From contig NC_087080.1 in NCBI RefSeq assembly GCF_026151205.1, forward strand, positions 13,089,337-13,153,336: a stretch of DNA of 64,000 bases, given 5' to 3'. A program made the translations under genes and the position numbers. Positions within the stretch are counted from its first letter, which is position 1, and every line of letters begins with the position of its first letter. The DNA is from Bolinopsis microptera. Its lineage: Eukaryota; Ctenophora; Tentaculata; Lobata; Bolinopsidae. The notes beneath the pieces were generated by a model, which searched no databases, was not told where the DNA came from, and saw only the letters and a program-made list of their open reading frames with translations. Shown here piece by piece: positions 1,947 to 21,849 of this stretch.

Positions 1947-4900
1947 TCATATCTTCGTTTCATCGCTATTCTTCCTGCTACTAAGTTTAGGAGATATCTC
2001 GGAAGGGGAAGTAGCACGATTATCTGACAGATCCTTCTCCATCTTCTTCTTTTTCTGAACTCTCTTCTTCAGGTTCTCCAGATGTAGGACCATGTTGGGG
2101 TTCTCCAGGTCCTCAGCTAAGCTGAAACAGGACCGCTCGTCATAATCCTGCGGAAGGAAAATAGAAATTTAGGTTACAGTGAATTCCAAGAAGATGTGTT
2201 AAAATGAGGTCTATAAGGGACGTTAATTAATCGTTCTGAGTCTCCCATTAAAATTGCAAGTTTAAAGAAAAAGACAATACTTATTAGCTCACCTTTGCTT
2301 GAATGTCAGCCCCATTCTCAACAAGACGTGTTAACATATCGAAATCATTGTTATACACTGCCCAGCATAGAGTTGAAACCTGGTCATAGTAGTATTATTG
2401 GTCATATGCTCCATCAATATTTTACATATTGCAATGTCGAAAGAAGAATCCATTCGGTTTTAGACACAACACTATACAATCAGGAATATCAGCTGAAAAT
2501 GAAGAATAAGCACAAGCACTGACCTCCATCTCTTTTGTCATGGATAGTTTAGCTCCTGCGCTCCTGAGATGTTTGCACACATTGTCGTGTTTATGCTGCA
2601 CTGCTTCAAAGAGTGGGGAGTAACCGAACCTTAGGGAGGTGACTCAAGTCAGAGCATGGAGGGTTTTAACAATTAACTTTAGGGTTTGTTGAACTACAGT
2701 ACGTGCATCGGACTACAGTACGTGCATCGGACTACACTACGTGTCGAACTAGAGTAATTGTACCGACTCAAGTGAGAGCATGATGTGTTACGGATCACAT
2801 TTATTGGGATGACAGTATTAAATTGGATTTCTTATAAGAGCACCAAGATGCTGTTTAGGGAATTTATTTTATTATCAATAAATTACAGGACACTTAATTG
2901 GCTTTGGACCGTCATAGAAATTCTCCCAACATAGCAGTTCTTTCCCAACATAACAATTGTACAACTACGTCATGTACACAGATATAAGGCTCAACCTGTC
3001 CAGGGCGTTAACATCTGCGTGGTTCCAGATGAGTAGTTTAGTGGACTCCAGGTCCCCAACAGAGGTTGCTATGTGGAGTGGGGTCCTGTTATCATAGTCT
3101 TTCACCTGACGGAACATTTGTAGTCAGGTAGATTATCCACTTACAGTTACAGATATCAATTAATAAGTTAATAGAAAAGGTGACAGTCGAGACTATAAAT
3201 TTGCCTTCTAAAAATAACGGTTTATATGGGTATTTTTGTCGTTCTGCGCATATGATGAGCTTACACACTGGAAATACTAAATCACCTCAGATTTATTTTT
3301 ACAATATGAATTACAATATAAAAAGTTTCCTTGTGTTTCAAAAACGCCAGTATAATACTCACGTTGAGGTCAAGGTCGAGGTGTATGAGGCGCTGGAGAG
3401 TGTCATGTTCTTGCATGTACACCAAAGCACATATCAGCGAGGGAACCAGTGCCTGGTGGGGTATTAAATATGTTACCATAACAACTAGATCTGTTGCCAT
3501 ATCTAATTTCTGATAACAACTGATAAATACAAGATCCGTTGTTACTCTATGCTACAAATTATAGCTTTTGTTAACGAGATGAAAGAAATACTTGCTGTTC
3601 ATGATGAAATAATGCTTAGACATTTAATTTTGCTATAAAAGGTGCTCAATACTTCTTACAACTAACATGAAACGGAAATGTGTATTTATTCAAACTTCAA
3701 ATAATCGCTAAAAAACAGCAATGACATGCTGTATAGCCGGTTGCTATAGCAGTGACATGCGGACGACATTCAGACTCACAGCGTTAACCGGGTCCAAATT
3801 TCTAGGCTTGATATCAAAACTATCAGCCCTCGTCAATAACGGGGTGGATTCTGTCTGAGATAATGATCTATTTGGGGTAAGGAAAATGCAATTTTAAGAG
3901 GTAAAGGGCTACTGATAAGATCCAGACTTGTACTTGAATAATAGGCCCGTTAACGCTGTGAGAAATCTAACTATAATTTTTTCGGTATGAAATATCGCCT
4001 CTAGATATGTTTATCCTCTTACGAAGGTTGATTTATGACAAGGTTTCTTATTGCATTTTGTAATTGCACTCCATCGACAAACTGGACAGTGCAAATATTA
4101 CAAATATCAAAAACTATAAAACTTACTGCCTCCATTGCTTCATCTTTTCTGTTTTCTTTAAGTAGAGCCATGAGAACTGTGGAGATCAGATCAGCGTCTA
4201 GGTGCTTAGCAGCAATCCTGAAACAATTTGGGGATAAGAAAACAAAATCTTTAATGTGTTTTGAACTTTTGAATGCAAAATATAGTCGATTATAAGATAC
4301 TTGAGTCTTTATAAAAAATGAAACATTTGAATTATAAAAATGGTTAAAATGGAGGTGAAGTAGGAACAGTTCCTACTTCATTTCCATTTTAACCATTTTG
4401 AGAATCCAGCTAAGGAACCAAGCAACTGTAAATTGAGCAAACCTTGCAGCCCGGATTGGTTGGTAGGGGAACTTGGTCTCCATGTACTCCGCAACATTTG
4501 GATTTTCTATAACTAAACTGCCAAAGCATTCCATCGGCGTGTTGCCCCATCTATCTGCGAAGATGTTAACTTAAGTGTTTTATTATAGAAAGTGCTTTAC
4601 AGAAAATGGAGAAATAAAACAGTTGATGGTACATTAGGTTCTGATAGAAATATTTCTGTTTCTGTCGACACAGCAACGTCACAACCAACCACTTAGTTAT
4701 TCATTTTTGGTTTTCGAATCGCAGTTTGTATTGCTCTTTAACTTTTTTTTCGACAACACCATGCACTATGCAGCCTATATAATAATTGTAGCGCGGACCA
4801 GTAGTGCATTGCACAACAAGCATCTTATAAATAATCGATCGGTCGTTCAATCAATCAATTTACATTAACGTATTAACTAAAGTTATGATCGATTTAAAAT

Positions 4901-7900
4901 CCATAGGTAAATGCTGAAAAACCAAAAATTGCTCTAAACTTTATTGCAATTCGACATTTTTGAGACTAGTTAAGCATTAATTTTATATTTTATAATTCGT
5001 TGTCTGAGAAAGTGATCTGTGTTGAAGCTAGTAATATATTAATATATAGGATTCACGATTATTTTACTCGTCCGAAAAGAATGCATGGTATGAGCCTAAA
5101 TATCAAAAAGCGAACCTTTCAGTTCCTTATTGGCGCTATATGTCTCCAGGATCTTCATAGCCGTTCTGTTCTTCCTCGAGTACGCAATGTGCAATGCTGT
5201 TCTGTTGTCATAATCCCGTAAACTGCAGTCCACTCCACATTGTAGCCAAACCTGCTCAAAAAGGGTCTTTCACATATTACTTAATCACTACCTAATAAAT
5301 GACGGAATATGTGACGGAATATGTGACATAATAGGTGAGGTAATATTATATCTGAGGCTTTATTCGTATCCATTTCGTAATGCAACTAGCAAGCATTAAG
5401 TATAGGCACCCACAATAGAAACCTTGTTCATATATTTTATATTATTCATCCATTTATTTTATACTATATTTATTTTACATATATATCATATATTATGTAT
5501 TATCATGTAATATATTTATTATATTCATTTATATCAGCTCATAACACCTACCTCAAGAAGATCATGGTCTTCGTTGTAAACTTGGTAACAGAGAGTTGAT
5601 GCGATCGCTGTTTTAGGCAAATACACTTTACCTGAAAATGGAATGAAGTAACAAAGTTTATCCAATGTTTAATGTTTATCTAGTGTTTATATCTAGAGGA
5701 GTTTAAACAGATACTAAGTACTGACCTCTCTAACAAGTATTATCATAACATTGATTAGTGTTACGATGTTAGAGCTAAAGTGACAGCTGTGTCAATAGAT
5801 TATATAAAAAGTAGTTAGTTTAAAATAAACTTGATAAACATTAGCCCACCTCCTTTGGAGTGAATAAGTTTAGCGAGCTCGGTGTTTCCTGCCTTCAAAG
5901 CGTCTGATAGCGGAGTATTACTGTAGTTATCTTTAGAGTTGACATCAGCGTTCCAGCTCAACAGGAGATTTACCACATCCTGGTTGTTCTCTGCTGCTGC
6001 TATGTGAAGAGGGCAACGTCCATCGTAGTCACTGTAAAAAAAGTTTGCAGTTGACTCTAGACCAGATTTAAACGAAAAAGCAACTTAATGGAAAATTGTT
6101 TAAATAAGTTTGTTCGACTTCCGATAAGGGACATTAATTAGGATAGAGCGAAATGCTTCAAAACCAAAACATACTAGTACATACAAGTAAAGGCGCCAAA
6201 AACTCATATACAATTCGTAGTACAATCAAAAACACATACACAATTATTGTGATCACATGAAACAATTATAATGTTCTAGTTGAGAATCTTATTCTTATTT
6301 TTGAGGAACTCGGCTGACATTGCTTGTTTGTCCTCTTTTCGTATTCTCAAAGTTTCGTGTATGTTCCAGATATTGTTAAAGACATTTTGCATCTGACGCC
6401 CCCGGGCAACCCTCAACTGAAAGAAACCGGACAATTTATTAACTTCTCCACTTTCGCCACGGTTAAACACTTTGACGTTTGGACAGTCCACCACTTTCTT
6501 CCCCGCAGCTTTGAGTCTCAAAAAGAGATCCTTGTGTTCCATGATCTTCAGCTCCTCACTCCAGCAGCCAACCTCTAAAATATCAGCTGTTTTCGCCATG
6601 AAAAAGTTGACGGCTGTATCACATCTCGTGCAAGATGGAAAACCAGGGATTGTTTCGTTGGCATAGTAACAGGCCCCTTCGTAATATTTCAATTTTTGCT
6701 CACTTGTTCGTTGGTCGTTTTCGTCAAGGGAAGTAAACCATAAAAATCCAGAAAAGTATTTTGTTCTATGAAATTTACCACCGACCAGGGATGCATCTGT
6801 AGTGTCCAGAATCTCTGCCAAAAGTTCTATGTCAGTTCTGTTGTATACAATGAAGTCGTCATCAAATAGAAGGAAATATTTCGTCTGAACTAGTTTCACA
6901 GCTAGTGTCCTCCCTAGGGATATTCCCAGATCTGACTTGTCTCCAATTATATACTGCAGATTAGGGAAAGAGGCTATTTTACTCATCATTTCATCTGGAT
7001 ATGGGCCAACTCCATCATCATACGCGATCATTGGAATATCGTAGCCTTTGGTGTCTCTGATGGATCGAGCAAGTCGTAACACAAGATGAGGCCTTCTAGC
7101 AGTTTTGATCACTGCAGTAACACACTCAGATAAGTTGTAACACCTTTTTACCTCGCTAGAAGGGAGTAGCTTCACAGGGGGTGGTCTCTTGTTTATATTG
7201 CAAGCAGGAAAGTTACAGTCAGGATTGTCTGCTGGTGCTGGCTGCGAAAGAGCTTTTCTTCTGGCGATAAAGTTGGTCTCTTCTAGAAGGGTTACACGCG
7301 ACAGAGTCTCAATGCAGTCTCCGAAAAAAACGGGTGATTTTTCGGAACGTTTTTCAACTGTCTTTCCTGTAAATTCTTTGCGAGAAACACAAAACTCAGC
7401 CCCATGAGAACTATCAATGAGCTGAAGGTATGATTCGTTCACAACGCGAAAGCTAGCTGCAGTTGAGCATTCTCCCAACTTTAGGGGGCGTGGTTGAATT
7501 TCTTCCGTTGTCAAGGTAACGCAGAGTCCAGAGCTGGAGTAAGCTAATTTACCATCTTGTAGGAAGTGAAATGTATGATGCTGAGTGGGATCACAGAATG
7601 CGTACTCCAGATTGGACCCATTTGATGATATGATACACTTCCCATCCTCGACTAGTTGGATCCGAAAGTGGGGGTTTGCCCCGTCCAATGGTATGTGTGA
7701 GATGTATATGCCATAACTTATTTGCCCTTGAATCAATAGGTGGATCACTGACGGAAATGAAATTACTATATAGAGAAGAACAAATAGGAAGATTATTTTC
7801 TTGGCAGTCGTGGATCTGAGCCTCCCTGCCATTTTCTGCTGAATTGAAAATTTATTGATTACTGGCGACGAAATGAAAGTCTCCACTCACTATTAAACAA

Positions 7901-10900
7901 AATAAATCATTTACTGTCGAAGGTTCGTGTGTTACAGCTAGGTAAAGAGTTATTTCAACGTTCGTCTATGAAAAAGGCATGAACATCGAAATTACAACAT
8001 TATGTAAGTTCCTGAAGTACCATCATAACAAAACAGCAGCACGACTTTCCGCAAAAAACCGTAAAAGATATATATTAAGTACAACTTTTTTGAATGGTTC
8101 AAAATAACGTTAAATTTTGATAATCAGCAGTCCTATTTGATTGGGCACTATAAAACAAAGGCAAGAAAAGAAACAACGAGTAGGAGGTAAAAGTATATTC
8201 CCTGCCCACCCAAACAGCGAGTGGGAGGTATTTAAGTATTCCTTGCCCTCCCAAACAGCGAGTGGGAGGTATAAGTATTCCTTGCCCTCCCAAACGGCGA
8301 GTTCGAGGTATTAGTATTCCTTGCCCTCCCAAACAGCGAGTGCGAGGTATAAGTATTCCATGCCCTCCCAAACAGCGAGTGCGAGGTATAAGTATTCCTT
8401 GCCATCCCAAACAACGAGTGCGAGGTATAAGTATTCCTTGCCCCCCCCCCCCCCCCAAACAGCGAATTCGAGGTATAAAAATTGCTTGACCACATCAAGG
8501 CCCCCTCTCTAAAATTGTATAGTACCGATTTCTTCTCAAGAAACACATTGTTATTGTTCATCGTGTCTTGTGAGGTAGTCACAATACTCACAATCAACAA
8601 TGTTCACAAATTTCAAACTCATAATACAAGTACAACGTGAGTGTACCTCATCACTTTATTCTTTTATTCCTACTGAGACTCGTGTTTGTAATACAAGAGA
8701 ACCGCAGGGAATTGTATGATCTGTATAATGAACTGCGAGAGAAAAGTTTCCCTGACCTTGCAAAAGGTCGAAGAAAAACCTAACCACTCTGTTGTACCTT
8801 GTCTAATAAAAAGTAAAGAATGATAAAAGTAAAATTCTAATCAGTTACCGCACTTAAATTTAAGGGGGGGGGGGGGTTCACCCCGAAAAACCAGGACCGG
8901 TGACCGAACTTTTGAGGGGGTCCCGGACCCCAACCGCCAAACGGTGCCCGCAGGGCAGCCACGCCCATATTTGGTCCAAATCAGGCCCAATTTAGCCAAA
9001 TACCCTGAACATGCCCAAAACCCAGATTTTAGGTGCTCTTCTTGTAGCTAGTGGTCCCCTGAACTCGTATATGAATTTTCATCAAGATTGGACAAAAATG
9101 ACTGAGTTATGAGCCAAAACCCATATGACCATAATTGGGCATACGCACCAAATTTGATCGATTTTGGCTCATAAGTTGGTCAATATTTTTGAATGAAACC
9201 AACTTTATATGGAAGGTAAGCCTATACTACACATTCTCTATGATTATCAGCTCAATATCTACCTAACTGTTTGCCCGGCAAATTTCAGAATTTGGCCGCC
9301 AATTTTTTTTAAAGGCCTAACTCAAAATTCTAATACAAAACTTAAGGTCATGAGGCGATTCTACGTCGATTCTGAAAATTTCATGAACAAATATATATGA
9401 AACCCTATTGAGTTCTATTGTTTTGAGCGAAGTCAGTTTTGCAAATATCGCGAACTGAGATATGGGCGATTTTGTTCATTTTTTGCAACTATTTGAACAC
9501 AGAATCCACAGTTAGGTAGATATTGAGCTGATAATCATAGAGAATGTGTAGTATAGGCTTACCTTCCATATAAAGTTGGTTTCATTCAAAAATATTGGTA
9601 TTTGACCAATTTATGGGCCAAAATCGATCAAATTTGGTGCGTATGCCCAAATATGGTCATATGGTTTTTGGCTCATAACTCAGTCATTGTTTGTCCAATC
9701 TTGATGAAAATTCATATACGAGTTCAGGGGACCACTAGCTACAAGTAAAGCACCTTAAATCTGGGTTTTGGGCATGTTCAGGGTATTTGGCTAAATTGGG
9801 CCTAATTTGGACCAAATATGGGCGTGGCTGCCCCGCGGGCACCGTTTGGCGGTTGGGGTCCGGGACCCCCTCAAAAGTTCGGTCACCGGTCCTAGTTTGT
9901 TGGTCAACTACTATCTCGAAACTAAGTTTCACAAAAAAATCAGGGTGAACCCCCCCCTCCCCTTAAAACAAGTGTTCTCACATAAAACAAGTGGATCCTG
10001 CTGATACGGGACTTGAATTCGGCTTGAATCCTAGACTACTAGATGAAACCTTGATATAATGACAAGTAACGAGTAATGAATGAGATTAGATAGTACTCTT
10101 TGGACATGTATTGAGATTTGGTATCTCTAAACTTCTAGAATACTGGGACTTCACCTTGAATTCCCAGCTTGACGTGAAATCCTATTGATTTGTGGTTACA
10201 ACAACTTGAAACTGTTACTGCTGACATGTTGGTTCATGTGGCGGCTATGACCGTGTTCAGAGGCAACATATTATAAGTGTGGCAAAATGTTGCGAAAAGT
10301 GCGTTTCCGCACTTGCCTAAATTTGCTTAATGTGCGGCGAATTTGGCGAAAAGTGCTGCTCAAGTGCAGCGAGTTTGGGCCTTACGGGTCTGGGCCTAGC
10401 TATAAACGTCTTCAAAAATGCTTGTAAAAATGGCCAAAAACTATGAACACTCCCTAACAACAAAAGAGCAACTGATAAAAGATATGATTATTATGACTCT
10501 GATCGGGAACCGGACACGATTTGACGGCAAGATTATATTCCATTTCTATGTTTTATCAAAAGATGACTTTTTGGCGCTCTGGTCGGAATATACAAAATAT
10601 TTAGTATCGAGATAAACGATTCATTAAGTTAATCTAGCCAATATTTTGAGTTTTTAAAACAAATTGTGTGAAAAAGTGCGGAAAAACGACTGTTTATAGT
10701 GAGAATCAGTGCCACCGTATTTATATGTTGCTTCTGAACGTGTTCGCTGATTTTTCGGTGTATTGGTTGAATAATCGATGGCTCCAATTTTTCGACCTAT
10801 CAGTACAGTGCACAGTTAAATATTTATCATATCAAAGTACACAAGACCTTTAGTACCTCGATAGGAATTCCGATTACTGAAAAATAAATGAGAAGACCGG

Positions 10901-13900
10901 TGCTCTAAGTCAAAGTTTGTCATTACCCGCATATTTAGTTGTCTTTCTTAAATACTATAGCTAAAGGCTTTAAGTTTAAGAACTACTGCGTTCACTAGGT
11001 TTTTACAACTTTAACAGCTGTGAGTGCTTAAAAACTGTATTTAGAAAATATCATCAACATGCAGCTGCAATCAGTATCACCACATGCAGCTGCAAATATT
11101 TATCCCTGAGTCCAGTTTGAGGGGGCTGAATTTGTCCATTATCCGGAGGTATGGCTATCTTCAGTGAGGGCGGTTTGAGCTCTCCTGACATCTATGTTGG
11201 AGTATCTTGTATATGTCTTTCCATCCTCTGTACAGTCCTCAACTCCTTGGTGCTCCTTCGCAACTACCACAAGAACAGTTCTGTAGCCAGGAGTCTCTAC
11301 ATCTGTCTGTGTGTTACAGATCTTCTCACAGCCTGGGTCTTGCTGGTTCCTTACTCTGTTCTCAAGCGCTTAAAGAGCCAGATATCCAGGGTGAAGACAG
11401 TGAAGGGGTATCTAGCGATCAAGAGGACATTAAGAGAAGGTATGTTGCAGATTTGTCAAATAAGATACACCATATTATTGGCTGGACAGTTTCTTTGGCT
11501 CCAAACCATGTCACCGCTTTCTTAGCCATGACCCGCTACTGTCAAATGAAATATCCTTTTCAGCCGATACGATCAAAACATGTCATGTTAGCAGTTTTCT
11601 TTTCTCTAGCTTGGATTCCAGTGGTTATGAGCTTCTCGTTATTTATTGAAAGAGAAGGAACCGAAATAGACATTTTAAAACTTCATAATGCAGTCATGAC
11701 CGCGAAAGATGCGCATATATTTGGAATTGTTACTACAATAAAGATCTACCAACTGATAATCAATACTCCGACAGTCCTGCTCCAGCTCTGTGCTATGATA
11801 TCTTCTATCTTTACTATATACGTGATAATCAAGTCATTCCTAAAACCAGCAGCTGGTGGACGTGGACGTTGCAATACTAAAAGCACCGTAAGAATTCTCA
11901 TAACAAATTTGGGAAGTTTTATCGCTGTATTATCTTACGCAAATGTGATAAGCGCAGGAGATAACGATGACCTTAACGAATTATCACTTGGAACAGGAAT
12001 AAGGGTTCTTGTTACCACTTTGATTGTCCCATCACTATTGTCTACCATCAACCCAATAATTTACATTATTTTCGCGTCTGGATGTTCATTCAAGTTCAAA
12101 ATCATGCCGGAAAGAAACGTTTAAATTTGCGTATGGAGCAAAGAAATAAACTCTTTTGAACTTTTTAGTTAAATTCTAATGAAATTTCTAAAAGTCTAAT
12201 TCTTTATTTGATGAAGACAGTCGCGTTAAGTTTTCTCCTCACACGACAATTTCATGATAGGGCACTTATTTGATTTAAAGTCTTGTTCTTGACTAAATTA
12301 TATTTTGCACATTATTAGATGTACCTTATCGGATCTTATCTGAACGGACATTAAATTAGCGCTAGAGGCCCTAACGTTCATCTTAATGTCCGTTCAAACA
12401 TCAAATAAAGTTCGTTCATTTAAGGTTCGTCCAAGTTAAAGTCCGTTGAATTTTTTTCAATAATGTTTCCATTTCGAACTTTTTGTCCAGAATATGACAT
12501 CTATGAGAACTTTATTGTGCCGTAAGTTAACGACGGAAAGGTTCTCCTTGGTCTGCCGGAGGCACTGAAAACTTTAGTAGTATATGATGTTTTCGAGGGT
12601 CACTTGGCGGAAAAAGTCAACGACATTATGGCACTCAACAACATAGTTCATGAGCTATTGAGCTAGTCCCCGCCAACATGACAAACTTGTTCCAACCTCT
12701 AGATATTACGGAAAACCTCTAGATATTACGGTAAATCGTGTTGCCAAGGAAATTGTCCGACGTTGTTATAGTTCATATTACTGCAGGGGAGGTAATGAAA
12801 CAGTGCTAGGAAAGCTCCATGTGATGTTAAGGTTAACCTAAAGTTGTCTAAGATAAAACCACTTCACGCCGAATGGCTTGTAAAAGTTAACACTGAAATG
12901 CAGCATTGAAAAAGGTTTCCATAATTAAGCTAGAAATCACTGATGCTTTAAGCATGGACTATTTCATGCACGAAAACCCATTTGATGAAGATGATATGTG
13001 ATATAAGACACTGATCATGTACACATGTTTTAACATTTTTACTGTTTAACGACTGTTTTTTCTTACTTACTGTATAAAAATAGATTTAAAAATCATTTGC
13101 TGAAATAAAAAAACGTCAAAAAATGAAATAAATTCGGATTTTTGATGGTTTTAAATGCCTTCTAGTTCATATTAATGTCCGTTCATAATTATGTCCGTTC
13201 ATTTAATGTCCGTCCAAATAAGGTCCGATAAGGTATCATATCTTCTTCTCTGTAAATCAGTTACCATTTATACTTCTGAAGAGCTATCTATGTTTGAATC
13301 CCTCCAAGAAATTCAGTGTTATGATGGGGACGGGGTAATCTAGGAAATTTAATAAAAGATGTTTTTATGACCTGCTAAAATGTTAGACTGAATTTTTCAT
13401 TCAGTATATTCATAATCATACAGTGTACAACCGTATGGCTAAATCATTTGGTGCGTTAAGGTTGAGTAACATCAAATGAATTTGATGAGTATTGAATACG
13501 ATCATATCCAATATTTTTTATTAGAAATGTATCTTATGCTACGCAGATATATTTGTCTCAGGGAGTCTGGGTCCCCCTCCCCAGTATTTAGTTTTAAACA
13601 TATCCTTGAAACCATATTTAACCCCATCTCTATCGCCTCGTTTAGAATTTCCGTTGCCTGTACTTTTTGAAACACTAATCTAATGATAAAAGGATTAACA
13701 TATTTTTCAAAATCATTCTCAATCTGGTTGAAGTAGAAGAAACCGTTGACGACAACCAATCACCCGAGGATGCAGGGATCATGGGTCCGTCCGACGGACC
13801 CATGATCCCTGCCGTCCGTCGCCCAACTAATACTTAATAGTAATGATGAATACTACAAAGTTTAATTTCTGTTGTTATTCTCCCTATACTAATACTGTTA

Positions 13901-16900
13901 ACGAAATTAGAAGAATGTGAAATATATTTGTAGGTGAAGTTCGTGATTAATGAATTGTGACCCCAATCCACTTACAAATCTGCTAATTAACCACCCATGA
14001 CCTGCATCATCCACTTTACCATCTAGGGCCTGCACAATATGGACCAGACTGAATGCAGAGTGAGATCTGCGTACGACTATAGTTCCCTATGGAGAGTGGA
14101 CGTGTCGCTACGCTGTAATAAAGGAACTCTAAGCAGGTTTGGTGACTTGTAAAGAGGGAGTTTTATACGTTTGAGGAAGTCCCTTCTTGTTTTACAAACC
14201 ACGTAGGTGGATTTTCTAAAAAGATCTATATCTACTTACAACTGAGCCTATCAACGACAAGTAAAACTAACGGTGGTTTAGAGAAATTATTTTCACTTGT
14301 TGCTGTACGTTTACGATCCTAGTCGTATTTTAGTTGCTCCTAGTTGTATTTAAGTTGAGCACTTGTAGTAATCACGACTAAAAATAACACGGCCTTGTTC
14401 GTGTTCCTGAGGCAAGGAATTCATCAGACAGAAGAATGTACGTGATCAATTTTGACAGCTCCGATATCAAAACTTTTTTATAAAAGTAAATCTATAATTA
14501 GGTTACAAGGCCCATATCAGTATCACTGATAGAGGGTGTTATAAACTTTACAATTATTATTTAATTATAGTACCTACCAACGATATCTTTGTCTTACTCA
14601 CGAGTACGCCCTTTAACGTTGACAGTTGACACATCCTTGCTTCACTGATATCACGGGCAACTAAAATCAAAGTTTTAATGAAAAGAGGCCTTGCGAGAGA
14701 ATGTCTACCTGTCTAATAAAGGAACGTTTTATAACACCCAACGTGAAATATTGGCTCCTTGAGGTGACGATAATAATCGCGAATTCTTGACAGATGATGA
14801 CTTGTGGCGTATAATAACCTGCCATGTTTCCTCTGTTTTATTGCTTTCAGGTAAGGAGTGACTTTCAATTTTGTTGACTAAATGGCTTGTCTGCAGAAAA
14901 AACTTTGACATAGACAGCCACTGATGGGATCTCACGATTGAGCAATCGGAATCACTACTTAGATGATGATTTTTTGATTCCCTCGTGTATTTTAAGTGTC
15001 TGATTGCAGCCTTGGGTTGCTATTAAGACGCTGGCTACCGATTTAATTTTCTTGACCATTCGTTCAATTGATTCCGATTTAAACGGTTCCTGCATTTTAA
15101 AAAGTTTTAAAGACAGCAGACATACAACTGAAGATTCAATAAAAGTCTAGCCGTCAAAAATTGAATGCTGAAAAAATGATGCTTTAAACGGTACACGTAC
15201 TGAAGTTCGACATGTATCCAAGTTCGACACGTACCGAAGTTAGATAAGGTTGATTTCATGCGAACTTAAGTGAAGGCGAACTAAAATGAACAGAATCCGA
15301 TCATTTCGATTTTCTGTTCAATTATATCAGGACTGTAGCTAATTATATCAGGACTGTAGCTGTTCTGTTTGAAGATTGCGTTTACTCAACGGGTTTAGGC
15401 TTGTATTACGTAATGCAAAGTCCGTTTTAAATACGATTGTTGATTAAACAGAAGAAGGGCTGTCCTCTTTATAATAATCATCATCATGATGATTTCCTCT
15501 ATTTTAAGGAACGTTACATGTGTACCTCGTCAGGTGCGACATGTCGTAGTGCACAAAGGGCAGAAATTAATCCAGCTGAGTGCTGATTCATACGGACAGC
15601 TTGTTCTCTTTGACAAAAGGCGACTCTTGGCAAATCAATAACTTGTCAAGCTAGATTACAATCCCTCGACAGATCGAAATTGAGCCATTTTAGGTTATAC
15701 ACATGTTAGCGCATTACACACAATGTGTTGGGATATTATATCGTAAAGTTATAATATTGAATACTATATGCCTCAATTATGCTCATTATCAGCTCTACTA
15801 GCCCCTGTCGTCCTGCCCATCTAATTGTAAACCTTTTGTGACGGTTTTGTTTCGGTTTTTTTGTTTTGTTCAAGGAGAAAACTTGTCACATACTAGTGAT
15901 CATACTCATAGGTCCAGGATCGAGATCAGAATATACAGGGAGGCCCAGAGTTAATGACCACCCTATATATCAGACGATTAGGCAACGTGATAGGAGACAC
16001 ACTCAACTACCACTATGTATATATTGTATAATATATCATCTTGCGATTATTGATTTTTGCGAGACCACTGAGTGAACATGTGCTTTGTTGAGTAGAAGCT
16101 TTGTCGAACTTGAAATATTAACTTGAGCGATTATTATTCACGGATGAGTTTATGTTTTCTTTGTTATTTTGCAATTGTTTCTGCGAATAACGTTTTGTCG
16201 ACTAGTTCGAATACTTCGCACATGATATTGATGCTATATTTTCGGTACAACAAGCAATTCTAATATTGTTATCCATCATTACTTATTTTGCAATTCAGCT
16301 CGCCCAGACGTCTGACGAGGTATAGTAACGACAAATTTAATTTAAATTAACACCGATAAATTGATAATTGATTATTAATAATAACTTATTTGATAACAAA
16401 AGAACAAGCGAATTAGGAGCTGTTTGATGAAATTTGTAGCTTATTAAATTAACTTTACAATTATTAACCTAGTTAACTTGAATAGCTTATTGAACTAATA
16501 CCTTGAGTTAGGGGAAGCTCCGTACTCCAGCAGCTTTTTAATGGACTTCGAGTTCCCGTTTTTAGCATACGCGCACATCAGCACTGGTAACATTGACTTC
16601 TCAATGCTTTGTAGCTTTTGAGGGGACAAATCCTTGTACTCTGCCAGAGATGTGCTCATGTGAAATTGCTGAAATTGGTGTTGTGTTATGACTTGTGTAA
16701 TCTTGTTTAAGGCTAAAAGTTTGTTCCGTTTTTGATAACCGTTAAGATTTTGTGAAAGATTTTGTGTCAGTGTGACCATGTTCACTGTTAGTGTTATAAA
16801 TAGAGCAACGACACTGTTTGATAGTGTTCGTTTGCTTTATAAATTCAGAACGACCCTAACGAACAGTATCACAACATCAAATGGCGCCAAATCAGCAGAT

Positions 16901-19900
16901 CACGTGGCACCATTGGAACTGTGATATTGAAAGGGCGCAGATGGATCCATTTCATAGGATCCGTTAGCGCCATGATGTTCTTTTTGGAAATACCACGGGG
17001 TACCTTCAGCTTCGCGCGCATTTTATAGCCATAAACAATTGGAAAGCGTTTTATAATGATTACATTTCTGTTATTTCGTGAAATTATTTGGACAGGCATA
17101 TTTAGGCAAGTTCCACTGAATCTGATACGCCTCAATATTTTACCAAATTTTAATTTACAAGTACTGACCTTGATAACAAGTTTAGAGAGATAATATCTCC
17201 TCAAATGATCCTCAGGAACCGTAAGGTCAACCAGGTTAACAGGTATCAGGCTAGGGAACGAACCAGCCGTCATGTAGCAGATGATACAGACTATAGTTGC
17301 AGGCAGGGCAAACCAATTAATTCCTGGATGGGATTTTACATGAAACAATCATAATTCATAGAGTAAGAATCGTAACAGAAATATTATTCAGTTATTCGGT
17401 CATTGGTTTCAATGCGCGCTTTAATTAAAAAGTTATGGGTATCAATGTCAATCTTCAGTTACAAGTAACTATTTTGATAATACTGGAAACTTACCGAACG
17501 GCTGACAAAAGCTTTGAACTGCCATGTTCAATATCGCTGCAGTCATCACAGCCACTATGCCCAACACCACTGAAATAAATTATACTTTCATAAATACAAC
17601 AAGAATATCAACCAATAGCAGATCGAAACTATTAACTAGTGATCAGGAGAACAGTGAACACGTATCAGAGGTGGAAAACAAACAACTCCAAAAATAGGGA
17701 CACAAACCTGAAGCAAAGTTCAGCAAGAAGAAGTTGCCGACAAGAACACTGCTGGTAATACTGGAGTTGATGCCGTACAGTCCCAGCCTCATAGAGACAA
17801 CATCCCACTTGGGTCTGAGGAAGGCGACGGTACTGATGCCGACAAAGGAACCACACCATGTTGTTATCAGCATGATAGGAGAAGCACTTGCCAGCCCTGG
17901 GAGGGAGGCAGTGAGTTGGATGGAGGCGGTGAGTTTATTTCAGCCACCGGGTTTTAATTGGATTATTTTCTAAGTTTAGTTCACTGTGTAATCATTCATT
18001 TTGAATCTCTGATCATTTTAACAAACAACAACCAGACTGCTAGTTATAGCTGAACACCATACCTATTGAAATAGGGATGGCACTCCAGATTGAAACGGAG
18101 AACTGTAACATCGCCACTCCGTATATTATCTCTATTCCGTATTCGTATCTGTAGGAGTAAACAGCTGGTATTCAACCTTTAGATAAACTCAAAATACTAC
18201 GTATTTTACTGCCTGCAGGGACTGCAAAACACAAATTTGTGAATCAAAATCAATCTGTTCTGAAACATTTACAACTTACGGGGATACGTCAAACCAGTCC
18301 CGTCCCGCAAAAGTAATGTTGTCTGTAGCAAAATCAGTTAAAGGAGCAACCAGACTGGGCGTGACTGCGTTAGTGTAGAAACTGTAGGACTTCCTGATGG
18401 CAAGGTGCCAAGACATTCCCAGGGTTAGTCCTGATAACATCATAGGAGTAACGTTCAACCTGGTAACATGGTTTGATTGAAGTGGCAAAGTTATAAAAGA
18501 TATTCCACAATTATATCATGGTGCTACGTAAAATAAAAATTCCTATACATGTTAATTTTGGAAAAATAATAAACCTACTGACCTTTTCACAAAAACACTG
18601 CAGAGGGCCTCGAAGAAGATAATGTTGAAGAACAGCAGTGGGATGAGTATTATAAGCTGCATGAGGCATTGAGGGTGGAGTGCAGCACCGTACGTTACAT
18701 ACATCGCGTACCCCACTATTATTCCTGGTGTCACAAAATGTAGATATCAACATAGTTTTGTCAGATGTTGTATGAATCTCTCATTTTACAATGTCAGATG
18801 TTAGATTTTATCCTTATATTAGCTTTGAACCCTTTGGAGTACCAAGATCTGATCTTTTGTATCACATAATTATGCGATAAGAATTTACCTTGAGATGGGT
18901 AAAGACCGTTTAAGATCAGTTCTTTGGGTATTCGGAGGTAGAAACACCAAATCATACTCCATATAACCGACCAAGACAGGAAAACAAAGTTGTACCTGGA
19001 TTAAATTCAATATTTTATACTGGAAAGGACTATACTACTACAGATATTGCCAGAAGTACTTGTCTTTTCAATCTCAAATTTACTGAATAGAATATTGGCG
19101 TCGCTCCAATCTAAACAATTCTAAAAGCTCAATAGTTAATTTGGATGGAAGTCATTTGTTATAAAAAGCTGCTAACCATGAGTCACAGAGTGCAGCAGCT
19201 AAACCACACAGTCCCATAAATGGGTTACTTATTCCGTAGAACATCCCGACGGACCTAAAAAACGCGAAAAAAACTGAAAAAGAAAATAATTATTGATCGG
19301 AGATTATTGAAAGATAAAAAGGTCTCACATACAGATCGCAGTTAAGTTTGAAATAAGACTTCAGGGTTAGCGTACGGACAGACTATACTAGACAATCAGT
19401 TTCAAGGGAAACACAGGAATACCTCGGTACCAAACTATCAATATCATAAGAAATAGCCACTTCAAAACATTAAAGACGCAAAAACCACCGACCTAAAGTG
19501 ATAGGGAACTTCTGAAGGTAGTGATGAAAGTCAGACATGGTCCCCATGATGTAGCGGTAGAAGGGCTTGTCCACCACTTTGTATTCCTGGATATACTTAG
19601 CATTCCAAGGTGAGATTTCTTGGTAGTCAGAGTAGATGTTTGTTCGGTTACCTTGCGTGTTCCCCGCTCTGAAAGGAATTAAGATTTAACATCAAGTGCA
19701 TGAGTTTTTGAGGTTAGACGGTTTACATGAACTATGGAGAATCTTGTGATAGAATAATCACTTGTTCATCAACAGGTTTAAGTTGTCAGTATGTGAATTA
19801 AAGTTGTTTTAATTTTAAGGAGAAGGTTACATTGCCGGACTGAAATCATCAAGGTTCTTTCTCGACAATCTCCGCTCCATTTCTGTAATCAGGAACCCCT

Positions 19901-20854
19901 TCCAGCCCTTACAAACTGATTAGTGTTGTTAAGAGGAATATATAAGAGCAAGAAAAAGCAGATCGGGAACAAAATGTTAGAATTTAAAATTGTACTGCAG
20001 TAAACGCGAGGTAGTAAGCTTCGTGGAACTGTACGGTTACTTCAAAATCAAACAGGAATAAAACACGAAATGAAACTGGCACTATGTCCACTAATATATC
20101 ACTGCATTGCAATGCAGTACATAAATGTATTTGTCAACAATATTTGATCAGTATTCAGTACATGGAAGTAACTTGGATAAACAGGTTGGGTCGGTTCATT
20201 AATACAATCAATGAGTACACTCTAAAATTATCCTATCACTATTATCCTATCACTCATCAACCAACATTGCCTACAATTACTAATTAGATGAAAAACGTAA
20301 CCTCAAACGTACACGGCACAAGCTTATTGAACTGTAACCCAAGTAAGTGAACAGACAAGGGTTCGTGTATCCAGGGTCGGAACTCAAACAAACGGCGGAC
20401 CGGAACACAGGAAGTTAAAATTAAGCTCCTTCAACTTCACCTTTACTACCAATCTAAGTTATTCACGATTAACCCTTAACATGCATGTTTACGAAGATAT
20501 TGTGTAAATAGAGTTCAATACCACCCAATACCACCCAATCAAGATTTCATTAATCTAAACAGCCACAATATCTTGAAAGTTGGTTATGATGAGGAAAAGC
20601 TGGAAATCTCAATTGATGGTTGTTAACTTTCTGTTTAAAACTTGCATGATGAAAATATCATAGTTGGTCAGTACGCACTGTACGAACTTTTAAAAGGTGC
20701 CGAACTGTACGAATTTTAAAAAGCTGTCGAGGAATTTTTACCGAATTTTAAACCACTTACCACCGATTTGAAAAACCTTAATCATTTGGCTTCGTCAGAT
20801 ATTGTCGGCACTATTTGGGCACTATACAGAGTACAGACAGACAGACACTAGACA

Positions 20855-20889
<35 letters not shown>

Positions 20890-21849
20890 TTATTGAGATT
20901 ATTAGTATATATTGGTTATAATATACTAGATTCGTTCGTTAATAATACTCACCGATTATAGCGAGGAAGAAGTCAATAGCTAAGATGGCAAGTACGTACG
21001 GTACAGGGCTTTAAGTACGTACGGTACAGCTACTTTTAAAGGTACCGTACAGGCCCTATAGGGTACAGACTTTTTTGGGAAAAAAATGTAACTTTTTTCA
21101 AAGTTAGTGGAGTACTTGCAATGTTCCTAGTTAGTATTATCATAATTTTATTTGAGGTAGTAGTCGAAGAGGAACATGAATTATTAAGATAGTAAATTAA
21201 CAGTGAGAGATAAAAATGAACAGTGACAGATAAAATCAGTATCACATTTTAATGTGCTTATTGGAGTAAATAAACACTAGTTTTTCAGCAAGCTGAAGCT
21301 TCAGCCTCAGCCTTCTTTTATTCATATAATAAGATATTCATATAATAAGATATTCGTAGTCTCTAAAGTTTGTTTCACACATTAATGAGGATGCGCTAAA
21401 AATCGCGTAAACAACATCTGCCAACTTTTTCAACCAACATAATTCAAAGCGCCAAATCCAATGTCACATGGTCCAACCCTTCTTGCTTCTGGAACATTCT
21501 TGTACAACTGCTCTAAATCTAATGGTATAAATTGAAATGCAGCGATGAGCGAATTCAGCTTCCATGAAAGTTGTCGTGTGAACGTGGTTTTTGTGCATCT
21601 TTTTGCAATTGCAAGCATTGTACCTTTCAGCCCAAGTTTAAAAGTACGTACCGTACAGCTATTTTTAAAGGTACGTACCGTACGTACTTGTCATCTTAGG
21701 TCAATAGCAGCGATTATATTTATATAGAGCACATAGTTTTCCCAGCCCAAAACATTTCCAAGTTCAGTGATGTTCAGTCTAGGGATGTAGTGAACAGTGT
21801 TACTGTTACTTGTCACGGAGGGAGGCATTCTTGCCTTGGTAAATTGCAT
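1947..21849 (-). CDS. SLC14 (urea transporter)-like membrane protein fused to C-terminal ankyrin modules; 23 exons
   Basis: Exons (high to low): 21849-20953 (split by the MITE at 20980-21699), 19915-19831, 19668-19493, 19273-19177, 18995-18889, 18724-18583, 18459-18280, 18148-18063, 17896-17708, 17569-17495, 17323-17169, 16668-16502, 6031-5850, 5631-5552, 5251-5116, 4554-4443, 4217-4127, 3854-3780, 3452-3363, 3105-2996, 2629-2524, 2379-2293, 2147-1947. Every junction is GT-AG and every codon phase matches. Without the MITE the model is about 965 aa from ATG 21849, or 958 from ATG 21828. Exons 3-11 follow the SLC14 fold in order: HYLQKFP before TM1, GISNPFMG (compare VNNPVSG), GLYPSQGIIVG, then in the second half GLYGINSSITSS (compare GxWGxNSxL). 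Exons 12-23 encode four ankyrin doublets, each with DYDxR, and a Lys-rich tail. The expected role is urea or small-solute passage across a membrane. The MITE introduces an early TGA, so this allele may be disrupted. The join of exon 12 to 13 across 10.5 kb is the least certain step, although phase and ankyrin register agree. Confidence 0.8.
4337..4400. repeat. Near-perfect hairpin, about 30 bp arms
   Basis: The arms aaaatggttaaaatgga and tccattttaaccatttt pair with only a few mismatches around a tiny loop at gaacagttc. It lies in an intron of the transporter-ankyrin gene, 40 bp from the splice donor of the exon at 4443-4554. It could be a short MITE or a structured intronic RNA. Confidence 0.7.
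6276..7832 (-). CDS. Beta-1,4-N-acetylgalactosaminyltransferase-like type II Golgi enzyme with N-terminal lectin-like region
   Basis: Single exon, 518 aa from the ATG at 7832; the reading frame stays open further upstream but without an ATG. Residues 12-32 are one hydrophobic anchor after a basic N-terminus, typical of a Golgi type II enzyme. Residues about 40-185 look like a ricin-type beta-trefoil (repeated G-K-C/G-L-C units). Residues about 235-470 match the B4GALNT1/2 (GM2/Sda synthase) style catalytic domain: YDDG near 271, the metal-binding DDD at 324-326 in FLLFDDDF, LVGGKFHR near 350, and TAVNFFMA near 406. The inferred reaction is transfer of GalNAc (or a related sugar) from a UDP donor to a glycan in the Golgi lumen. 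It lies wholly inside the largest intron of the transporter-ankyrin gene, on the same strand. A splice-acceptor-like cag just before the ATG suggests a 5' UTR intron. It could alternatively be a broader GT2-type transferase with another donor. Confidence 0.8.
   Translation of the reverse strand: MAGRLRSTTAKKIIFLFVLLYIVISFPSVIHLLIQGQISYGIYISHIPLDGANPHFRIQLVEDGKCIISSNGSNLEYAFCDPTQHHTFHFLQDGKLAYSSSGLCVTLTTEEIQPRPLKLGECSTAASFRVVNESYLQLIDSSHGAEFCVSRKEFTGKTVEKRSEKSPVFFGDCIETLSRVTLLEETNFIARRKALSQPAPADNPDCNFPACNINKRPPPVKLLPSSEVKRCYNLSECVTAVIKTARRPHLVLRLARSIRDTKGYDIPMIAYDDGVGPYPDEMMSKIASFPNLQYIIGDKSDLGISLGRTLAVKLVQTKYFLLFDDDFIVYNRTDIELLAEILDTTDASLVGGKFHRTKYFSGFLWFTSLDENDQRTSEQKLKYYEGACYYANETIPGFPSCTRCDTAVNFFMAKTADILEVGCWSEELKIMEHKDLFLRLKAAGKKVVDCPNVKVFNRGESGEVNKLSGFFQLRVARGRQMQNVFNNIWNIHETLRIRKEDKQAMSAEFLKNKNKILN
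8171..8490. repeat. Minisatellite, about 39 bp unit, about 8 copies
   Basis: The unit is caaacagcgagtgcgaggtataagtattccttgccctcc with point differences between copies. One copy boundary has expanded into a run of about 16 C. It lies in the large intron of the transporter-ankyrin gene, just upstream of the glycosyltransferase ORF. Confidence 0.9.
8861..9966. mobile_element. Foldback element, 0.4 kb inverted arms around a 235 bp centre
   Basis: The left arm (about 8861-9272) and right arm (about 9507-9966) are inverted copies: aaggggggg and cccctt at the ends, ccggtgaccgaacttttgag against ctcaaaagttcggtcaccgg, and tctacctaactgt against acagttaggtaga next to the centre. The right arm has about 50 extra bases near its outer end. 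There are no coding frames of substance, so this is a non-autonomous long-TIR (foldback) element in the large intron. Confidence 0.85.
11151..12124 (+). pseudogene. Class A (rhodopsin-like) GPCR with a frameshift after TM2
   Basis: TM1-TM2 are read from ATG 11151 (IYVGVSCICLSILCTVLNSLVLL, RSLYICLCVTDLLTAWVLLVP). TM3-TM7 are read one base back in another frame that stays open to TAA at 12122-12124. Motifs: AMTRYCQMKYPF at the end of TM3 in place of DRY, and STINPIIY (NPxxY) in TM7. The sensible switch point is about 11365-11385, and no usable GT-AG pair can explain it, so one base is missing or two are extra. It could be a young pseudogene, a sequencing error or a polymorphic null. The gene is intronless and lies antisense inside the 10.5 kb intron of the transporter-ankyrin gene. 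The ligand is unknown. Confidence 0.75.
12145..12150 (+). promoter_or_regulatory. Poly(A) signal candidate of the intronic GPCR
   Basis: AATAAA lies 21 bp downstream of the receptor stop codon. The very short 3' UTR is plausible but untested. Confidence 0.4.
12324..13233 (+). mobile_element. Decayed pogo/Tigger-like DNA transposon, copy 1
   Basis: Inverted termini ccttatcggatcttat and ataaggtccgataagg are flanked by TA on both sides. Subterminal 'acggacatta' motifs repeat at both ends. The interior holds the end of a DDE transposase with stops and frameshifts (NDIMALNNIVHELL, then CSNL with a QPLDIT-like region), the pattern of the pogo/jerky group in which PxNxTxxxQPLD precedes the last catalytic Asp. 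It is an internally deleted relic, about 910 bp. Confidence 0.75.
13772..13812. repeat. Perfect 41 bp palindrome (20 bp arms, 1 nt centre)
   Basis: gcagggatcatgggtccgtc is followed by one c and then its exact reverse complement. No decay is visible in an otherwise drifting intron. Confidence 0.9.
20857..20888. repeat. (AC)n microsatellite
   Basis: A run of about 15 ac units, in the intron just 3' of the first coding exon of the transporter-ankyrin gene. Confidence 0.95.
20980..21699. mobile_element. 720 bp hAT-type MITE inserted in a coding exon
   Basis: Termini ctaagatggcaagtacgtac and its inverted partner gtacgtacttgtcatcttag are flanked by the exact 8 bp duplication gtcaatag (20972-20979 and 21700-21707). 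Eight-base target duplications are characteristic of hAT transposons. Inverted gtacgtaccgtac motifs recur inside. Removing the element and one duplication copy restores an open exon that ends in the right phase at the GTGAGT donor, so the insertion interrupts a formerly intact exon. Confidence 0.85.

What the first reader, a model, noticed from the sequence alone, without database searches (positions are those of the whole stretch)
1947..21849. Urea-transporter (SLC14) domain fused to a large ankyrin region
Twenty-three minus-strand exons join with matching phases at all 22 junctions. The first half follows SLC14 through both internal halves (GISNPFMG, GLYPSQGIIVG, then GLYGINSSITSS). The second half is ankyrin. 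As I know the family, vertebrate and bacterial urea transporters lack ankyrin repeats. An ankyrin tail could tether the channel or gate it. Exon 12 itself encodes the first half of an ankyrin unit that exon 13, across a 10.5 kb intron, completes in register (GASPNS + DYDGR), which makes an accidental join unlikely.
Basis: partly seen in the sequence, partly recalled or inferred. Interest (0 to 1): 0.9.

Follow-up and report, generated by a model that had tools for sequence, protein, structure and literature searches.

The report
Urea-channel relative with ankyrin tail
An animal genome carries three related genes that each join a urea-channel-like membrane protein to a long ankyrin-repeat tail, so the fusion is real, but the channel has lost residues that known urea channels use, so what it carries is open.

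Summary
The fusion is real. On the minus strand 23 exons (19880–1947, not 21849–1947) splice in frame into 921 residues: a full UT/SLC14 domain (66.6–71.4 bits, cut-off 25) followed by two colinear ankyrin cassettes. Decisive are two paralogues in the same genome (C9:3187233–3166066, C5:18200268–18188806) with the same order. In C5 single exons run across both places where the window gene has introns, so neither the UT–ankyrin join nor the join over the 10.5 kb intron is accidental. All three UT loci found carry the tail. That intron holds other genes, one an intronless glycosyltransferase on the same strand.

The urea part is weaker. UT-B pore residues Gln68, Gln232 and Thr339 are Met, Met/Tyr/Ser and Ala in the three proteins. 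Long bacterial UT frames, M23-fused in the one tested, also lack both glutamines (0 of 22 keep them) and often Thr339 (Ala in 15 of 22). I read it as a UT-fold channel of uncertain substrate with a cytoplasmic docking tail: a new variant of a known family. Ten searches of held papers found no description.

The parts
19831..19880 (-). exon 1 (proposed start codon at 19880), ends in phase 2
   Evidence: phase matches first exon of paralogue C9b; no sequence likeness to it and no transcript evidence
19493..19668 (-). exon 2, N-terminal stretch (SPWN, GTMSDFH)
   Evidence: conserved in both paralogues
19177..19273 (-). exon 3, UT first half (RSVGMFYGISNPFMG; Gln68 equivalent is Met)
18889..18995 (-). 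exon 4, UT (ends GLYPSQ)
18583..18724 (-). exon 5, UT
18280..18459 (-). exon 6, UT
18063..18148 (-). exon 7, UT second half (Gln232 equivalent is Met)
17708..17896 (-). exon 8, UT second half (GLYGINSSITSS)
17495..17569 (-). exon 9, UT
17169..17323 (-). exon 10, UT end (Thr339 equivalent is Ala; PEDHLRRY invariant in the three paralogues)
16502..16668 (-). exon 11, UT-ankyrin junction and first ankyrin-like unit
   Evidence: the homologous stretch is encoded together with the UT end in one C5 exon (18194502-18194296)
5850..6031 (-). exon 12, ankyrin cassette 1, after the 10,470 bp intron
   Evidence: in C5 one exon (18194183-18194063) spans this join
5552..5631 (-). exon 13, ankyrin cassette 1
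5116..5251 (-). exon 14, ankyrin cassette 1
4443..4554 (-). exon 15, repeat start DRWGNTP after cassette 1, and linker
4127..4217 (-). exon 16, variable linker
   Evidence: may be one exon with 4081-4023, the 45 nt between is open in frame
4023..4081 (-). exon 17, variable linker
3780..3867 (-). exon 18, variable linker
3363..3452 (-). exon 19, start of ankyrin cassette 2
2996..3105 (-). exon 20, ankyrin cassette 2
2524..2629 (-). exon 21, ankyrin cassette 2
2293..2379 (-). exon 22, ankyrin cassette 2
1947..2147 (-). exon 23, last repeat, Lys/Ser-rich end and stop codon
6276..7832 (-). intronless glycosyltransferase family 2 gene nested in intron 11 (not part of the protein)
   Evidence: Pfam PF00535 5.5e-10; 83 matches to it in this genome

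Best explanation
This is one gene for a membrane protein of the UT/SLC14 fold whose C-terminus continues into a long soluble ankyrin region made of two copies of a cassette of about five repeats. SHOWN from sequence: the join, its presence in three diverged paralogues, the cassette duplication, and a protein-coding pattern of conservation across the join. INFERRED: the protein forms the usual UT trimer with N- and C-termini in the cytoplasm, so three ankyrin arms hang under each trimer. The tail serves as a docking arm that binds cytoplasmic partners, holding the channel at a membrane site or in a complex, comparable in layout to the C-terminal ankyrin domains of plant SKOR/GORK potassium channels (cytoplasmic side recalled). 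The pore is probably still a passive conduit for small neutral molecules, but its filter differs from that of the known urea channels compared, so the substrate (urea, ammonia, water or another small molecule) is not settled.
For: Single in-frame model of 23 exons, 921 aa; Pfam UT and five ankyrin models in one protein. Two paralogues with the same domain order. C5 exon 8 carries the UT end plus the first ankyrin unit, and C5 exon 9 spans the window's 10.5 kb intron position. 17 of 22 introns shared with C9b, 11 of 22 with C5. Identity among the three is 42-56% over the junction exon, 45-48% and 51-56% over the cassettes, 36-47% over UT, 11-25% over the linker. Codon positions 1-2 are more conserved than position 3 in UT, junction and cassettes in all pairs. 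Cassettes 1 and 2 align without gaps over 163 aa, 31% identity, E 1.2e-29. No hydropathy peak over 1.6 after the UT part (window maximum 1.57). SKOR's ankyrin domain matches 168 contiguous residues of the tail and is the first natural protein listed for a 77-residue piece, after 17 rows of designed proteins. UT-B termini are intracellular (PMC3869693, passages).
Against: No transcript or protein data. A complete same-strand gene sits in intron 11, which could suggest two genes. Docking, trimer formation and topology are inferred; the simple hydropathy scan found only 4, 7 and 4 helices above threshold in the three proteins where ten are expected. The Thr339 position, needed in tested UTs, is Ala in all three. 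The likeness to SKOR is not exclusive: ankyrin-1 scores higher in total and latrotoxin-type proteins match stretches of 169-182 residues. All evidence comes from one genome; no other animal genome could be searched. No structure was predicted.
Confidence: 0.68

Rival explanations
1. Two neighbouring genes, a UT gene (exons 1-10) and an ankyrin gene (exons 11-23, with an ATG in exon 11), wrongly joined by the model.
For: Exon 11 contains an in-frame ATG; a complete same-strand glycosyltransferase gene lies in intron 11; no RNA data.
Against: In paralogue C5 the UT end and the first ankyrin unit are in one 207-nt exon, and the next exon spans the position of the 10.5 kb intron. C9b keeps the same two introns, in the same place and phase, at 179 and 622 bp. 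The nested gene has 83 matches elsewhere in the genome, on many contigs, as intronless frames, so it is likely a later arrival in the intron.
Confidence: 0.04
2. The UT fold has been turned to another use: it no longer passes urea but another small molecule, or it acts as a membrane sensor whose message leaves through the ankyrin arms.
For: Gln68, Gln232 and Thr339 of UT-B fall on Met, Met/Tyr/Ser and Ala in the three proteins under three alignment modes, whereas those positions are Q in 56, Q in 55 and T in 55 of 56 close bacterial UTs. Valine at the Thr339 equivalent brought urea flux to background in the UTs tested (PMC12171576, passages). The second Asn-Pro site is also lost.
Against: In a wider bacterial sample the same positions vary: of 30 loci, position 68 is Q in 6, position 232 is Q in 6, and position 339 is T in 14 and A in 16. 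Thr339 exposes only its backbone to the pore in one simulation (PMC3869693, passages). Ala is not Val. UT-A2, UT-A3 and UT-B also carry water and NH3. Substrates of the variant bacterial UTs were not looked up.
Confidence: 0.4
3. The ankyrin tail gates the channel directly, folding against the trimer and opening it on binding a partner, rather than only tethering it.
For: The cassettes are at least as well conserved as the pore domain; the stretch between the UT end and the first repeat is short and conserved.
Against: No contact residues, no structure and no ligand known; I recall no UT gated in this way.
Confidence: 0.2
4. A decaying gene or assembly artefact.
Against: 22 coding exons from 19668 are open with canonical borders; three diverged copies keep frame; codon positions 1-2 are the conserved ones.
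Confidence: 0.03

Closest known systems
SLC14 / UT family (UT-A, UT-B, bacterial UT; Pfam PF03253)
   Same: Whole-length profile match, both halves, conserved NP of the first half and C-terminal TxPE motif
   Different: Ankyrin tail; Gln68, Gln232 and Thr339 replaced; second NP site lost; 15-20% identity to UT-A1 and UT-B; below the NCBIfam yut equivalog cut-off (30.6 vs 274.6 bits)
Bacterial UT fused to an M23 peptidase-type domain (Pseudomonadota)
   Same: UT domain followed by a large C-terminal domain, with altered filter residues
   Different: The extra domain is M23 (Pfam 9.2e-11 in the one tested), not ankyrin; 16 of 22 long frames show the HxH-type motif searched for, 0 of 22 the ankyrin motif searched for
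Plant SKOR/GORK outward potassium channels
   Same: Membrane channel with an ankyrin domain towards its C-terminus; 168 aa contiguous match of the tail to SKOR 551-716 of 828
   Different: Unrelated pore (a K+ channel, recalled); no second cassette known to me; other ankyrin proteins match as well (ankyrin-1, latrotoxin-type), so the likeness may only reflect general ankyrin similarity
Kidney-type glutaminase and ankyrin-bearing asparaginase tails
   Same: DYDGRTxLH...DRWxxTP style repeats; a glutaminase-like gene in this genome has PDYDGRTALHLAVCGG...DRWNSTPLDD (enzyme names by eye and recall)
   Different: Soluble enzymes; no membrane domain; no homology test made beyond the shared motif

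Membership tests
SLC14 / UT (PF03253) | Profile match over the curated cut-off | tested here: met
   66.6 bits, 71.4 bits for the UT part alone; cut-off 25. All 3 paralogues match at E <= 0.01 (scores of the other two not shown)
SLC14 / UT (PF03253) | Both internal halves present | tested here: met
   Profile of the three aligns to both UT-A1 domains end to end (positions 29-391 and 20-393). Direct half-to-half blastp in the window protein was negative (best E 2.0)
SLC14 / UT (PF03253) | Two filter threonines (human UT-B Thr177, Thr339) | tested here: not met
   Thr339 falls on Ala in all three (3 alignment modes). Thr177 falls on Pro, on Leu/Leu/Ile, or on Met/Phe/Gly depending on the alignment, so it is unresolved; a nearby Thr-Pro is invariant in the three. 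Among 30 wider bacterial UTs position 339 is Thr in only 14, so this does not define the Pfam family
SLC14 / UT (PF03253) | Pore glutamines (UT-B Gln68, Gln232) | tested here: not met
   Met/Met/Met and Met/Tyr/Ser; not invariant in all UTs either
SLC14 / UT (PF03253) | Passive urea transport by a homotrimer | not testable with these tools
   needs flux assay and structure
Urea transporter equivalog TIGR03441 (NCBIfam) | Score over curated cut-off | tested here: not met
   30.6 bits vs 274.6
Ankyrin-repeat proteins | Tandem ~33-residue repeats matching Ank models | tested here: met
   Ank_2 128.5 bits, Ank 107.5, Ank_4 106.1
Two-gene rival (UT gene plus ankyrin gene) | No locus encodes both in one exon | tested here: not met
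   C5 exon 8, 18194502-18194296, encodes both

The most novel reading that the evidence does not exclude
In this animal every UT-fold gene has become an ankyrin-armed channel with a rebuilt filter, an old and duplicated family that passes, or senses, something other than urea and reports or anchors through its cytoplasmic arms. UT-fold channels would then be modular platforms, with M23 domains in bacteria and ankyrin here, rather than only urea pores.
Probability: 0.35. Interest if true: 0.72.

Novelty: new variant of a known kind. Interest (0 to 1): 0.52.

Why it matters
Urea channels are known mainly as bare pores (recalled). A family of them with large arms in an animal gives a natural case for asking whether UT-fold channels are placed or controlled by partners. 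The changed filter gives natural variants for asking what sets urea selectivity. The genome looks like that of a comb jelly (a guess from its size and 13 large contigs); if so, it bears on how early animals handled nitrogen waste without kidneys.

Tried and rejected
Start at 21849: rejected because that frame stops after 52 codons and I found no in-frame path to 19668. The piece 20979–20953, tried as an exon, ends in phase 1 by its open frame while the next exon needs phase 2.

First splice choice between exons 2 and 3 (19489/19254) was replaced by 19493/19273 because it matches the paralogues in length and phase.

'Filter residues are invariant in UTs' was my first reading from 56 close bacterial relatives. 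It was dropped after a wider bacterial sample showed variation. The 56 are 65–89% identical to the query; one of them stops after 42 codons, which explains the single gaps counted. In one search only the 30 best-scoring loci cut out were compared, of 56 genomes with a match among 398 searched; one of the 30 (L070) lies in the genome of L014.

SKOR as the closest ankyrin relative: weakened on recheck. In one search it is not the longest or highest-scoring natural match (ankyrin-1 totals more bits, latrotoxin-type proteins match 169–182 residues), so I use it only as a likeness in layout.

Origin from bacteria: a scan of prokaryote genomes with the trio's profile gave 29 pattern matches but no relative. 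A plasmid search found one very distant bacterial UT (20% identity, E 8e-3).

NCBIfam matches to secreted ankyrin effector models (best 103 of a 600-bit cut-off), to MzaA and to TRP channels are all far below cut-off and taken as general ankyrin likeness.

Literature: ten searches of open-licence papers; two searches returned none. 16 papers hold both 'urea transporter' and 'ankyrin repeat', and by title and abstract start none is about such a fusion; I did not read those 16. Three papers were opened, passages only: PMC12171576, PMC3869693, PMC6687202. Subscription papers and protein databases were not searched, so the fusion may already be listed as a domain architecture.

Full report
WHAT WAS CHECKED. 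The window lies at G000:C9:13089337–13153336 of a 264.65 Mb eukaryote genome in 232 contigs. I rebuilt the gene from the sequence by choosing splice sites by hand and joining exons in a script. From 19668 to 1947, 22 coding exons with GT–AG borders join without a stop. With a first exon at 19880–19831, and one splice site moved, the model has 23 exons and 921 residues. Pfam finds UT (PF03253, 2.7e-18, 66.6 bits, cut-off 25) and five ankyrin models (Ank_2 1.5e-37) in the same protein (on the 899-residue earlier version). All 9 PDB matches of the membrane part and all 12 are urea transporters.

WHERE THE REAL JOIN IS. Both sides of that join are already ankyrin. The join that makes the fusion is one intron earlier, 17169/16668, between the UT end (...TVPEDHLRRYYLSKLVIK) and an exon with its own in-frame ATG. 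On the window alone a two-gene reading was therefore still possible, the more so because a complete glycosyltransferase-2 gene on the same strand (6276–7832, PF00535 5.5e-10) sits between the ankyrin exons 11 and 12.

THE DECISIVE TEST: PARALOGUES. Searching the own genome with UT and ankyrin pieces found two further loci where UT exons are followed by ankyrin exons on the same strand. I cut them out and built full models: C9b, C9:3187233–3166066, 22 exons, 842 aa; and C5, C5:18200268–18188806, 16 exons, 811 aa, first exon not found. In C5 the exon 18194502–18194296 (207 nt) encodes the UT end and the first ankyrin-like unit without interruption. The next exon, 18194183–18194063, runs across the position of the window's 10.5 kb intron. 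C9b has introns at the same two places and phases, 179 and 622 bp long. Overall 17 of the window's 22 introns are shared with C9b and 11 of 22 with C5 (same phase, within two alignment columns). So both joins are real, and the large intron most likely grew by taking in other genes. The searches found three UT loci in all and all three carry the tail; they score only the best candidates exon by exon, so a missed fourth is possible. Weak matches on C12, C5 and C10 (28% identity, one stop each) were not counted as UT loci.

CONSTRAINT. Pairwise identity of the three proteins is 35.5–46.8% in UT, 42.3–55.8% in the junction exon, 45.0–48.4% in ankyrin cassette 1, 50.9–55.8% in cassette 2 and 10.9–25.0% in the linker between cassettes. 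Codon positions 1 and 2 are more conserved than position 3 in the UT part, junction exon and cassettes in all three pairs (for example 0.48/0.75/0.35 in the junction exon, window against C5). The linker shows this more weakly (window against C9b: 0.26/0.48/0.30). PEDHLRRY at the UT end is invariant. The cassettes are thus kept at least as well as the pore domain.

THE TAIL. Cassette 1 and cassette 2 of the window protein align over 163 residues without a gap (31% identity, E 1.2e-29). A hydropathy scan finds no peak above 1.6 after the UT part (window maximum 1.57), so the tail should be soluble. The same scan finds only 4, 7 and 4 helices above threshold in the three proteins where ten are expected, so topology is taken from the family. 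Among the best 60 PDB rows for the tail (of 402 matches), most are designed ankyrin proteins. Natural ones include ankyrin-1 (highest total), the plant potassium channel SKOR (168 contiguous residues) and latrotoxin-type proteins (169–182 residues). With a 77-residue piece SKOR is the first natural protein listed, after 17 designed ones. I use SKOR as a likeness in layout, not as evidence of descent.

THE PORE. In human UT-B two threonines, Thr177 and Thr339, form the central filter. Valine at the Thr339 equivalent brought urea transport to background in the UTs described (PMC12171576, passages; the two threonines also in PMC3869693, passages). In three alignment modes Thr339 falls on Ala in all three proteins; Gln68 falls on Met in all three; Gln232 falls on Met, Tyr and Ser; and the second Asn-Pro is lost. 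Thr177 cannot be placed with certainty. In 56 close bacterial UTs (mostly Rhizobiales) positions 68, 177, 232 and 339 are Q in 56, T in 55, Q in 55 and T in 55; the remaining cells are gaps. That looked like a loss of function until I widened the sample. Among the 30 best loci from a search of 398 genomes of the same phylum (56 with a match), position 68 is Q in only 6, 177 is T in 6 and S in 23, 232 is Q in 6, and 339 is T in 14 and A in 16. The variants are mostly long frames: of 22 frames of 480 residues or more, none has Q at 68 or 232, all have S at 177, and 339 is A in 15 and T in 7; among the 8 shorter ones Q, T, Q and T stand in 6, 6, 6 and 7. The one long protein I scanned has a Peptidase_M23 domain (9.2e-11), and 16 of the 22 show the HxH-type motif I searched for, none the one ankyrin motif searched for. 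So a changed filter is not unique to the ankyrin proteins, and UT fused to a C-terminal domain exists in bacteria. I conclude that descent from UT is firm and urea as substrate is doubtful.

HOW IT MOST LIKELY WORKS. Shown: one gene, UT family by profile, two ankyrin cassettes, protein-level conservation across the join. Inferred from the family: trimer, cytoplasmic termini (UT-B termini are intracellular), three arms below the membrane. Most likely use of the arms: docking to cytoplasmic partners so that the channel is held in place. Direct gating is less likely, because I recall no UT gated in this way. The substrate may be urea, ammonia, water or a related small molecule; UT-B, UT-A2 and UT-A3 pass the first three.

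NOVELTY. Ten searches of open-licence papers gave nothing on a UT–ankyrin protein by title or abstract start. Protein databases that list domain architectures could not be searched, so 'not in print' is limited to this library and these terms. I rate it a new variant of a known kind.

ORGANISM. Nearly all matches lie on contigs C1–C13 (one on C62), and the genome is 264.65 Mb. The listing of PMC11797021 gives a karyotype of 13 and 248 Mb for the comb jelly Mnemiopsis leidyi (abstract start). I recall a similar figure for Bolinopsis. This is a guess and nothing above depends on it.

Noticed in passing
window 6276-7832 (-): Intronless glycosyltransferase family 2 gene inside intron 11; 83 matches to it across the genome at E <= 1e-10, itself included, many of them long open frames, so a large intronless family.
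   Followed up: partly
window 11189-12124 (+): Open frame of 311 aa on the opposite strand in the same intron that looks like a seven-helix receptor by eye; no Pfam match at E <= 0.001.
   Followed up: partly
L007 7675-8427 and 9139-9903, L008 425-1177: Three intronless sulfotransferase-type genes (PF17784) on the same strand nested in the 9.4 kb intron 8 of paralogue C9b; intronless genes inside introns recur in this family.
   Followed up: partly
L005 9349-9930 (-): 193-aa Lys/Gly/Asp-rich repetitive open frame inside the 3.3 kb intron after the first modelled exon of paralogue C5.
   Followed up: no
   Followed up: partly
L005, about C5:18193290-18192900: Tandem copies of the end of a coding exon together with its splice donor in paralogue C5, which could give alternative exon lengths.
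   Followed up: no
C9:3172084 (paralogue C9b, exon 11 donor): A GC-AG intron at the homologue of the window's 10.5 kb intron.
   Followed up: no
window 28875-31441 (+): Retroelement-like pair of frames; the second has a GIY-YIG domain (31.9 bits), the first has no Pfam match at E <= 0.01; likeness to Penelope-like elements is recalled.
   Followed up: partly
window 58494-60005 (-): Intronless cytochrome P450 gene, PF00067 4.6e-78.
   Followed up: no
L073-L098 (Pseudomonadota genomes): Long UT frames with altered pore residues make up 22 of the 30 loci compared; one tested has an M23 peptidase domain and 16 of 22 the HxH-type motif; their substrate was not looked up.
   Followed up: partly
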